From positions 620,001 through 684,000 of the forward strand of contig NC_089395.1 in NCBI RefSeq assembly GCF_003171515.1: a stretch of DNA of 64,000 nucleotides, read 5' to 3'. Below the pieces are notes generated by a model. It worked only from the letters and a program-made list of their open reading frames with translations. It ran no database searches and had not been told where the DNA came from. The position numbers were made by a program, and so were the translations under genes. The stretch comes from Pyrenophora tritici-repentis. Its lineage: Eukaryota > Ascomycota > Dothideomycetes > Pleosporales > Pleosporaceae. Below are positions 9,058 through 64,000 of the stretch, one piece after another (position 1 is the first letter of the stretch; every line of letters starts with the position of its first letter).

Positions 9058-9219
9058 CACAGTCCGCAACAATCAATTAAGTGGGTCCTAGAAGGTTCAG
9101 ATTGGATTGATTGATTACCGCTTTAAGCCTAGTAGTTACCTATAGGAGTTTAAGCCCTACCTAGATAGGTAAGTGGGTCTAGGAGAGTGACCGGATTGAA
9201 TTGATTGTTGCGGAGTCTA
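9058..9219 (+). mobile_element. 162-bp hAT-type MITE, copy 1
   Basis: A short non-autonomous DNA transposon. Its terminal inverted repeats share a perfect 16-bp core, TCCGCAACAATCAATT; over 21 bp the two ends match at 18 positions, starting CACAG on one side and TAGAC on the other. It is flanked by the 8-bp duplication CCTTTCAC at 9050-9057 and 9220-9227. Internally the two halves are imperfect direct repeats, each beginning AAGTGGGTC. It has no coding capacity. An 8-bp target duplication with CA/TA-started ends fits the hAT superfamily. By eye the sequence is identical to the copies at 43007 (inverted) and 62551. It lies 195 bp upstream of the ATG at 9415, so it may sit in that gene's promoter. 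Confidence 0.93.
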
Positions 9220-43006: not shown

Positions 43007-43168
43007 TAGACTCCGCAACAATCAATTCAATCCGGTCACTCTCCTAGACCCACTTACCTATCTAGGTAGGGCTTAAACTCCTATAGGTAACTACTAGGCT
43101 TAAAGCGGTAATCAATCAATCCAATCTGAACCTTCTAGGACCCACTTAATTGATTGTTGCGGACTGTG
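43007..43168 (-). mobile_element. 162-bp hAT-type MITE, copy 2 (inverted)
   Basis: By eye identical to copies 1 and 3 when reverse-complemented. It is flanked by the 8-bp duplication CCCACAAG at 42999-43006 and 43169-43176. It lies about 110 bp upstream of the ATG at 43280 and interrupts a minus-strand frame that is open on both sides. Confidence 0.93.
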
Positions 43169-60585: not shown

Positions 60586-62265
60586 GATGCAAATTTCTGA
60601 GTTACGAAACTTACACACAGTGTATTCGTATCCAATCATACGAGCGCACGGCATACGGTAATCGCCAGGCTCGACAGCTTGCTGGCTGACCGTTCCAGCT
60701 GGGCTTTTAGCAAGAGCAAATAGGCACACTCTTGAAAAGCAAAACATGCACATGCGACAAGCCACGACAGCAAGCTGAAAGGTATCTTGACTTGGATGGG
60801 CTTGGCTAGATAGGCGGGGCGTAGGAAGCACGTTGGAGCGCGGAAAAGCTTGAGAACGGGTCGGTTCCGGTCAAGCTTCGAGCGGCAATCTTAGCGCCTT
60901 CGCTTAGCTAACGATTGTGACTGCTTATTGGGTGTCATGGAATTCTTATCTTTTGGTGGGATTGGCGACGAGTCTGGGCTAGATGACACCGGTATCGGGC
61001 TCAATGGGTTTGATGGGTCCGGGTACTTTGAGGGGTAAGTGGTCCATTGTATGTTAGGCAGAGGTAAGGATGACCAAAAGATCAAGACCGAGAACAAGAG
61101 ACGATGGGATTTTTGCTAACGATCGATAGGGCGAATACAGCTTATATCATAATCGCGAATATGGTGGCTCCAATGGTGCTATCTATTGAGTGGTTTTTTC
61201 CCAGTTGTATGTGCGTGAAGCAGGAGCCAACAACATTACAGGTTAGGTCAGCTCACAAAATTTTCGGGGTTCGCGCCACATCGTCTCCAATACGCAGAAC
61301 ACATGATGGGCCAGCTACTCACTTCAATTATCACTTGTGATGATGTACTGGTCGGGAAATCGTGTACTCACACTCTTTCTTACCCTTCAGGTATGACTTG
61401 CCAAGTTTAGATACATTGTGTAAGAGCACAAGCACGAGCACGAGCCACCGCGCATATGCGTGCATAATTCTCCACTTTCCGAAGATCGCCTACGGCCGTA
61501 AGTTCAGCAGCGTGTCGATGTCTTGGCCTCATCGCAAGGATGACCATTAGAAGAGTGATGATTGAAAGTAAACGACAAAGACATGGCAAGGCTCAAATGA
61601 CTCTTACACTTAGCCTTTATTACGGCGGAGAGGGGCGCCGAGCGCTAATAATATAAGAGAACGACCAATCTTGCGTGATTTCGAAGTGAGAAGCGCGAAG
61701 AAATTGAAAGAATCACGTGGATGATATTGGACTGTTGCAGAATGCCTTTTCTGACGACTGTATTAAGCATAAAACAATTTAGTGTACCAATAATAATCTT
61801 TGTAAGACACTACATGTTCCTGATGATCGATATAGAAAGGAGAATGTCAGAGCGGATGCTCAGGTTGGGATATCGTGTAGGGATGTGGGGGGTCATATGG
61901 AGACAACGGTATAAGAACAGGTGTTCGTAAGCTTGAAAAGTCCATAGTCAGAGCTTATAGGTGTAATTCGGGAGTTGATTGATTGTTTGAGTCTGATGAT
62001 GATGACGATAGCAAGTAATGTGTAATTCATCTAATCTCGATAAAACTGCTCCCTCAGATAGATACAGCGTATGCAAGAACCAACTGATCATCTATGATTC
62101 CCTAGAAACAATTCCAACACTCCCCAGTGCTGGCCAGCACGCAATGCCGATACTAGATGATACTATTCAGGCGCTTTGTACCTCACTGCTGAGTTTTATG
62201 GTAACCACAGCCAAAGAAACAATATGGATATTTCAAAAGGATCAGAACCAAAGCCTTAACGATGC

Positions 62266-62811
62266 TCAATCCATGTTCTTGCAATAGCAGTGACAAGTGT
62301 TTCCACCGTTCCTGTAAACGAAGTAAGCCTCTTCCTCTATAAATTTGGTGGTGCAAGACATACACTCGGGCTATGGCGACGGCAGTCGATCCGGGAAAAC
62401 AACTTGATGCGCACAAGGAGGTTTGGCCTAGAAAATGTTAGCATTTGTCCGTGCCAGCAAACCAAAAACCAAAAATCGAAAGCTAAAACAGAACATTTAA
62501 CTACTTACAAGCTTTATTATCTACAGCCTTGCAGTTGACCTTGTCAAACGCACAGTCCGCAACAATCAATTAAGTGGGTCCTAGAAGGTTCAGATTGGAT
62601 TGATTGATTACCGCTTTAAGCCTAGTAGTTACCTATAGGAGTTTAAGCCCTACCTAGATAGGTAAGTGGGTCTAGGAGAGTGACCGGATTGAATTGATTG
62701 TTGCGGAGTCTAGTCAAACGGCAGGGGTTCATGGTCTCCTAGGCACCAAGTTTGGACATCGGCGATGGCGAGAGACACGAACAGTGTCGTAATGAGGATA
62801 GCTGACTTCAT
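62266..62811 (-). pseudogene. Small secreted Cys-rich (defensin-like) gene split by a MITE
   Basis: The minus strand reads a signal peptide from ATG 62811 (MKSAILITTLFVSLAIA), then a short mature segment to 62713. At that point MITE copy 3 (62551-62712) interrupts the frame and its first three bases give TAG. Beyond the MITE the frame resumes in phase through 62509-62542, 62364-62427 and 62266-62311. The two introns are GT-AG: 81 bp with a perfect GCTAAC branch site, and 52 bp. Ignoring the MITE the gene would code 80 aa with eight cysteines after the signal, including a CxxxC (CASSC) and a CHCYC cluster as in CS-alpha-beta peptides. A TATTTAAG element lies about 100 bp upstream. As it stands only a 33-codon truncated peptide can be made. 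Defensin-like fold and antimicrobial or effector role are inference; joined sequence is not given. Confidence 0.6.
62551..62712 (+). mobile_element. 162-bp hAT-type MITE, copy 3
   Basis: By eye identical to copy 1 (9058-9219) and in the same orientation. The 8-bp duplication GTCAAACG flanks it at 62543-62550 and 62713-62720. It lies within the coding part of a small secreted protein gene on the opposite strand. Confidence 0.94.
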
Positions 62812-63342
62812 GGTGAATAATCACAAGGTCGGGAGGGCTTTGTGATGGATAGAGAGTAGATTGTAGAGTAGAATGATTGATGATACTCTGGTAAAGGGTA
62901 ATGGGCAGCCTTAAATACTTGAGAAAGTACACATTGTCGCCCTCTCCCCTTACAGTACAAGGATATTGACTAACTCGTTCGACTGAATTGGCAAAGTGAA
63001 GACTTCCGTCTCGTCCCTACCGGCACCCCTTCTGCAAGAAGCACGGATCATGGTCTGAGTATCACAGGTTTCGTCTTGTCGAAACCTACCCACTTGTAGT
63101 GTTTTCGTATACCAGTCCGCAAATGCCACCCAGAGGGTGCACTAAGTGGCACCTACCCATTAATACCCAGAATAATCCTCGTAACCTTTATTTTTACTTC
63201 CAATGGAGTCCCTTTGCATGAGTCATCGCCGATAATATCGTCTGGTGTCTTTACGCCGCCTCGTTCGGCTCGTCGCGGACCAGTCGTCTGCTCTCGTGTC
63301 TCGGCGTCTGACGATGATCGGCGACCCCCTCGGCACTCCCGG
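62812..63342. other. Intergenic, promoter of the split gene
   Basis: Contains TATTTAAG at 62910-62917 on the minus strand, about 100 bp upstream of ATG 62811. Otherwise no gene is seen. Confidence 0.4.
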
Positions 63343-63738
63343 CCTGTCATCCATTGCCTTGGTAATGCCCAGACCTATTAGTATACTCGCACGGATGGCG
63401 CTTTTACACTCGCTGACATGGGCGCTCTGACCTACACATGGTATAAATAAACCCCCACAGCTTACCCACCCCCTTTTGGTCATCTCGGGGGAGCATCCGT
63501 CCTTCTCGTACCCGATCCCGATCACCCTTACTCGATCTTTCCTGTCTTCAATTGCCTTGGTGATATCGAGACCGTCTCGTACATTCGTACGGACAGGATT
63601 GTTTCAGTTGCCGACATGGGCATTCTGTATGGCACAAATTAGCCCGCAACGATCTACTATACCAGCACCTTTTTTGGCAGCCTCGCGTAAACATCCGTCC
63701 TTCCCGCACCGACATCCCGCCAATTTTTCCCCTACATC
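63343..63738 (+). repeat. Two decayed direct repeats with 198-bp period
   Basis: Unit 1 starts at 63343 (CCTGTCATCCATTGCCTTGG) and unit 2 at 63541 (CCTGTCTTCAATTGCCTTGG). Further anchors keep the same spacing: GACATGGGC...CTCTG / GACATGGGC...TTCTG and CATCCGTCCTTC twice, the last 199 bp apart. The units are perhaps 65-70% alike by eye, so they are old. They could be a decayed LTR or minisatellite. No coding potential; the repeat may extend beyond these limits. Confidence 0.6.
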
Positions 63739-64000
63739 GTCTGATTGTCTGCCCATTCTATCCCCGGATTATCCGGGTAGCTCAACAAGGCGATATTCAC
63801 ATCCGTTGTCCCCTCTCATCCTGATTGTATCGCTTGTATTCAGTTATCAAAAAGGTTGTGTAAAATCTCAGCTATTATCAGTCTATGTAGAGAAACCCAA
63901 GTATTGTAGACACAAACCGTGCAGTCTATCTACCACACCGCCATCGAATTGCTCGAAGGTGATACTCTGTAGTCCCGTGCATCTTAGGCACAGGCGCATA
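63739..64000. other. Window end, nothing recognised
   Basis: No gene. It may continue the decayed repeat region seen just upstream. Confidence 0.35.

What the first reader, a model, noticed from the sequence alone, without database searches (positions are those of the whole stretch)
62266..62811. MITE insertion splits a defensin-like secreted gene
MITE copy 3 sits exactly in a coding frame that resumes in phase on its other side, through two well-formed introns, into a cluster of cysteines (CASSC, CHCYC). The element begins with TAG and stops translation at once. This looks like a recent loss of a secreted antimicrobial- or effector-like peptide by transposition. Such losses can be selected in host or microbe interactions.
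Basis: partly seen in the sequence, partly recalled or inferred. Interest (0 to 1): 0.9.

Follow-up and report, generated by a model that had tools for sequence, protein, structure and literature searches.

The report
Mobile element breaks secreted peptide gene
In what is very probably the wheat tan spot fungus, a small mobile DNA element with several hundred identical copies has landed inside what looks like a gene for a small secreted cysteine-rich protein, cutting it off after 33 residues; this is a new example of a familiar kind of gene loss.

Summary
A 162-bp element (62551-62712) with an 8-bp target-site duplication sits in the reading frame of a minus-strand gene model. The upstream piece starts at 62811 with a signal-peptide-like N-terminus. 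On the other side the same codon phase continues through two canonical introns into seven more cysteines. The element supplies an immediate in-frame TAG. In simulated DNA such a phase-matched pair of pieces arises at 7 of 1,974,000 points. The element belongs to a young family: its 152-bp core occurs 435 times without mismatch in the same genome, and 35 of 39 copies examined have perfect 8-bp duplications, as for a hAT-type MITE. Assembly size and relatives point to Pyrenophora tritici-repentis, probably isolate M4 (inferred). 'Secreted cysteine-rich' is well supported. 'Defensin' is not: profile scores lie far below cutoff, and the score fell when the splice was corrected. No paralogue and no database homologue was found, so an intact allele elsewhere, recency in the population and any selective benefit remain unshown. 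It is a new member of a known kind: transposon inactivation of a small secreted protein gene.

The parts
62713..62811 (-). First coding piece: ATG, signal-peptide-like N-terminus, 33 codons, one cysteine; its last 8 bases are one target-site copy
   Evidence: protein search of the own genome finds only itself (1 candidate)
62551..62712 (.). hAT-type MITE, 162 bp, 16-bp perfect inverted repeat five bases in from each end; its end gives TAG in frame
62543..62550 (.). Target-site duplication, copy GTCAAACG
62713..62720 (.). Target-site duplication, copy GTCAAACG
62509..62542 (-). Second coding piece, continuation in the same phase up to the first intron
62428..62508 (-). Predicted intron, 81 nt, GTAAGT donor, CTAAC branch motif, TAG acceptor
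   Evidence: sequence
62364..62427 (-). Predicted exon with CxxxC cysteine pair
62312..62363 (-). Predicted intron, 52 nt, GTATGT donor, CTTAC branch motif, CAG acceptor
   Evidence: sequence
62266..62311 (-). Predicted last exon with three alternating cysteines and stop TGA at 62268-62266
62812..62917 (-). Likely promoter and leader: TATTTAA at 62917-62911, about 105 bp before the ATG, then a pyrimidine-rich leader
   Evidence: sequence; role inferred

Best explanation
A non-autonomous hAT-type MITE of a recently amplified family transposed into the first coding exon of a single-copy gene for a small secreted, eight-cysteine protein. The 8-bp target was duplicated. The element's terminal TAG falls in the reading frame, so translation from the original start ends after 33 residues (signal peptide plus a tail of about 16 residues with one cysteine). 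Because two introns lie after the stop, the transcript is also a likely target of nonsense-mediated decay (inferred). The protein is therefore lost in this isolate. What it did (effector, antimicrobial or other) is inferred only from size, secretion signal and cysteines. Shown: element, duplication, frame, stop. Inferred: that the gene was expressed and functional, the splicing, and that the loss is recent.
For: Target-site duplication perfect here and in 35 of 39 copies examined, this one included. 435 exact cores in the genome. The downstream piece is open only in the phase of the upstream piece. 7 of 1,974,000 simulated points match; random downstream pieces with 7 or more Cys, 463 of 369,000. 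Both introns have donor, branch and acceptor signals. Promoter-like TATTTAA and good start context. No stop other than the element's in either piece.
Against: No homologue of the downstream piece among about 5.8 billion database proteins (candidates of 27-84 aa by the tool's length rule, with a query lacking one residue, the middle exon's frame, 46-147 aa), so there is no independent proof that the model is a gene. No paralogue. No transcript data. Criteria in the simulation were set after seeing the locus, and once a signal-like start is given, chance alone yields a whole model with 8 or more Cys for 75 of 18,106 starts.
Confidence: 0.78

Rival explanations
1. Chance: the open pieces, introns and cysteines are random intergenic sequence and the MITE broke nothing.
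For: No homologue or paralogue; the model was found after the fact.
Against: Rate of 7 of 1,974,000 points, which for 435 copies in two orientations would give about 0.003 such cases genome-wide; start context, signal-like N-terminus, two intron signals and phase agreement all coincide.
Confidence: 0.12
2. The gene was real but already useless or dispensable before the MITE arrived, so the insertion had no effect and was never selected (compatible with the best explanation; differs on consequence).
For: No intact relative is known; MITE insertions at genes are common in this species: another MITE, PtrHp1, is associated with 41 further genes (PMC6209302, part 2 of the text).
Against: No other stop and no lost splice motif in either piece; earlier frameshifts cannot be judged without a relative.
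Confidence: 0.35
3. The element is spliced out as part of an intron and the protein is still made.
For: The element contains branch- and acceptor-like stretches on the minus strand (sequence).
Against: None of the seven GTs in the first coding piece begins the usual donor pattern GTRNG (read by eye).
Confidence: 0.04
4. Loss of this protein was favoured, for example because a wheat receptor or a microbial neighbour recognised it.
For: Precedent: AVR1 of a Fusarium oxysporum isolate was truncated by the hAT element Hormin and the truncated gene was shown not to work (PMC3428301, abstract).
Against: Nothing here measures selection or frequency.
Confidence: 0.12

Closest known systems
Hormin (hAT) insertion in AVR1, Fusarium oxysporum f. 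sp. lycopersici KoChi-1 (PMC3428301, abstract seen)
   Same: hAT-family element truncates a small secreted protein gene of a plant pathogen
   Different: There the gene, the host resistance gene and the effect on pathogenicity were tested; here none is known
PtrHp1 hairpin element of Pyrenophora tritici-repentis (PMC6209302; abstract, section 7 and part 2 of 5 of the text seen)
   Same: Short, many perfect copies, same species (inferred), similar length
   Different: 166 bp with a perfect 59-bp hairpin and 105 identical copies in M4; the present element is 162 bp, has a 16-bp perfect repeat and 435 identical cores; the PtrHp1-associated genes had no predicted effector or secretion properties. 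The paper also mentions another inverted repeat near ToxA (a 165-bp region was folded) with a different fold; whether that is the present element was not tested
Highly conserved MITE family with more than 200 members reported for P. tritici-repentis (PMC3538342, passages seen)
   Same: Abundance, conservation and spread fit; probably the same family
   Different: No sequence was seen, so identity is not tested
Small secreted cysteine-rich proteins of P. tritici-repentis (PMC3538342: 317 small secreted proteins predicted, 69 of them cysteine-rich; passages seen)
   Same: Size, signal-like N-terminus, cysteine content
   Different: This one is interrupted and shows no paralogue

Membership tests
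hAT-type MITE | 8-bp target-site duplication | tested here: met
   Perfect here and in 35 of 39 copies; the other four matched at 7, 5, 2 and 2 of 8 bases. The sample is the window's three, the best matches and the first 30 listed (all on contig C1), not a random one
hAT-type MITE | Short, non-coding, terminal inverted repeats, many near-identical copies | tested here: met
   162 bp; 16-bp perfect inverted repeat five bases in from each end; 435 exact cores
hAT-type MITE | Mobilised by a hAT transposase sharing the termini | not tested
   913 exact 16-base ends against 870 from 435 copies leave 43 others, not examined
PtrHp1 | Perfect 59-bp hairpin | tested here: not met
   Fold and repeat search give a 16-bp perfect terminal stem
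Defensin (cysteine-stabilised alpha-beta) | Match to a defensin profile | tested here: not met
   Downstream piece only: 11.1 bits, cutoff 25.1; 14.1 bits with a query lacking one residue; best PDB match E 0.38, a scorpion alpha-like toxin, not significant
Defensin (cysteine-stabilised alpha-beta) | CxxxC ... C ... CxC order (recalled) | tested here: inconclusive
   CxxxC and CxCxC present, but the cysteine that should stand apart between them is only two residues before the last pair (sequence)
Defensin (cysteine-stabilised alpha-beta) | Fold | not tested
   Would need the two sides of the insertion joined; left out
Small secreted cysteine-rich protein of a plant pathogen | Signal peptide, under 200 aa, cysteine-rich | tested here: met
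   By a home-made hydrophobicity and cleavage rule, not SignalP; 33 plus 47 residues, 8 Cys, counted on the separate pieces
Small secreted cysteine-rich protein of a plant pathogen | Expressed during infection, acts on host | not testable with these tools
   No transcript or plant data

The most novel reading that the evidence does not exclude
A MITE with hundreds of perfect copies in the tan spot fungus has removed an orphan secreted cysteine-rich protein from this isolate, the site is polymorphic, and presence or absence of the protein matters for host or microbial competition, so this MITE family is an unnoticed generator of effector-repertoire differences between isolates.
Probability: 0.13. 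Interest if true: 0.62.

Novelty: new member of a known kind. Interest (0 to 1): 0.33.

Why it matters
Gene loss by a MITE is easily missed by annotation: searches found no annotated relative of this gene. If the site is polymorphic it would add a missing secreted protein to the species' repertoire and show that a family with hundreds of perfect copies can switch such genes off. If not, it is one more neutral insertion.

Tried and rejected
Defensin membership: rejected, profile score below cutoff and lower after the splice was corrected. NCBIfam: no family (its models are for bacteria and archaea). Identity with PtrHp1: rejected on hairpin length and copy number. Paralogues elsewhere in the genome: none for either piece by protein; the DNA search scored only 40 of 461 candidates, which the MITE dominated, so it says little about the flanks. 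Repeated surroundings: 62830-64000 and 60620-62540 match only themselves in the genome. Structure prediction was not attempted, because the intact protein would need the two sides of the insertion joined. A ribosomal RNA (Rfam) search of the own genome to place the species was tried twice and not answered, so the species rests on the lactate dehydrogenase ORF and assembly size. Literature: the lists of searches (9 of 9 papers listed; 20 of 620; 8 of 39; 1 of 1; 12 of 137; 15 of 24; 12 of 19) show no paper whose title or abstract start describes this gene or this insertion; nine papers were opened, in abstract, sections or passages only, and the pangenome paper PMC9594970 and the ToxhAT paper PMC6737239 contain no word beginning with 'mite'.

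Full report
Source. The window is C6:620001-684000 of an unnamed assembly of 40,899,269 bases in 41 contigs. A D-lactate dehydrogenase ORF in it is 91-92% identical to its three best database relatives, two named as Alternaria and one unnamed; the named hits among the 120 listed (of 7999 scored) are Dothideomycetes, mostly Pleosporales (the classification is recalled). The published M4 assembly of Pyrenophora tritici-repentis has 41 scaffolds and 40.92 Mb (PMC7507622, passages); other long-read assemblies of the species seen in passages have 33, 28 and 60 contigs. I infer P. tritici-repentis, probably M4. No call names the genome, and the total differs from the printed one by about 0.02 Mb. 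Because this is a crop pathogen and the gene may encode an effector, the two sides of the insertion were examined apart.

The element. It spans 62551-62712 and is bounded by GTCAAACG on both sides. The inverted repeat is 16 bp perfect, five bases in from each end. The single strand, with DNA parameters, folds at -25.2 kcal/mol against a mean of -11.1 for 200 shuffles. The 152-bp core occurs 435 times without a mismatch in the genome, 0 for the reversed control. Of 39 distinct copies with flanks in hand (the window's three, the best and the first 30 listed, so mostly contig C1), 35 have a perfect 8-bp duplication; four do not, with 7, 5, 2 and 2 of 8 bases matching. Eight bases is the hAT pattern (established knowledge, recalled). 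Two further copies lie in the window at 9058-9219 and 43007-43168. The exact 16-base end occurs 913 times, against 870 from the 435 copies; the 43 others were not examined.

Comparison with described elements. PtrHp1, known from the 3' UTR of ToxA in some isolates, is 166 bp with a perfect 59-bp hairpin and 105 identical copies in M4 (PMC6209302, abstract and part 2 of the text). The present element differs in hairpin and copy number. An earlier genome paper reports one highly conserved MITE family of more than 200 well-spread members (PMC3538342, passages); that is probably this one, but I saw no sequence of it.

The gene. On the minus strand the first piece runs 62811-62713 with 33 open codons, a lysine-plus-hydrophobic start, an A-x-A-type cleavage site and one cysteine. 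TATTTAA lies about 105 bp before the ATG, with a pyrimidine-rich leader between. The element's TAG follows the piece at once. Beyond the element, 62542-62266 contains three coding stretches and two introns of 81 and 52 nt with donor, branch and acceptor motifs. It gives 47 residues with seven cysteines, and only in the phase of the first piece. None of the seven GTs in the first piece fits the usual donor pattern, so removal of the element by splicing is unlikely (read).

Is it more than chance? In first-order Markov DNA of the window's composition, 8,360 of 1,974,000 points have a signal-like ORF open up to them, and 7 of 1,974,000 also have a phase-matched downstream model with seven or more cysteines. 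A random downstream piece reaches seven cysteines in 463 of 369,000 trials; of 18,106 signal-like starts in 246 Mb of simulated DNA, 75 lead by chance to a whole model with eight or more cysteines and 202 to one with seven or more. So the cysteines alone are not overwhelming genome-wide; it is their coincidence with this insertion point and phase that is rare. Among the copies in hand, 77 site-orientations could be tested; 3 have a signal-like upstream ORF and 1, this one, also has a downstream model. A scan of 180,807 real bases (window plus 37 loci, both strands) for uninterrupted whole models of this type found none among 64 signal-like starts, and three shuffles found none. The criteria were set after seeing the gene.

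Relatives. Neither piece matches anything else in the genome at the protein level. The downstream piece shares no three short words with any database protein of suitable length, and the middle exon's open frame gave one candidate and no match at E 10 or better. The database is clustered, and I could not show that every Pyrenophora proteome is in it. Absence of an annotated relative therefore fits three cases: an orphan gene broken in every annotated isolate, an orphan gene missed by annotation, or no gene. With the correct splice, Pfam gives Resistin 12.1 bits and Defensin_like 11.1 bits, cutoffs 25 and 25.1; the first query, which lacked one residue, gave 14.1 for Defensin_like. Solved structures give nothing significant. 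'Defensin-like' is therefore a resemblance of cysteine pattern only.

Reading. The best account is loss of a small secreted cysteine-rich protein by a young hAT-type MITE. The loss of the protein follows from sequence if the model is right. Recency is suggested by the perfect duplication, the identical family and the absence of other stops, but not by population data. Selection is untested. The precedent, AVR1 of Fusarium oxysporum truncated by the hAT element Hormin, is experimental (PMC3428301, abstract). The case is therefore a new member of a known kind.

Noticed in passing
window 63343-63429 and 63541-63627; 63474-63512 and 63672-63710: Two diverged direct repeats with the same 198-base spacing (71% and 74% identical), upstream of the broken gene; the stretch 62830-64000 matches only itself in the genome. 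Perhaps an old tandem duplication.
   Followed up: partly
window 9058-9219 and 43007-43168: Two more copies of the same MITE, each with a perfect 8-bp duplication; the first ends about 55 bp before a stop-to-stop frame of 474 codons with no Pfam match at E 0.001.
   Followed up: no
whole genome (G000): 43 exact element ends beyond those of the 435 identical cores, possibly older copies, shorter variants or a transposase-bearing relative.
   Followed up: no
G000 C1:4557601-4558057 (L035, L036), C1:6788842-6789275, C4:2615037-2616405: MITE copies within a few hundred bases of each other: two pairs in opposite orientation on C1 and four in the same orientation about 400 bases apart on C4, suggesting close or tandemly amplified insertions.
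   Followed up: no
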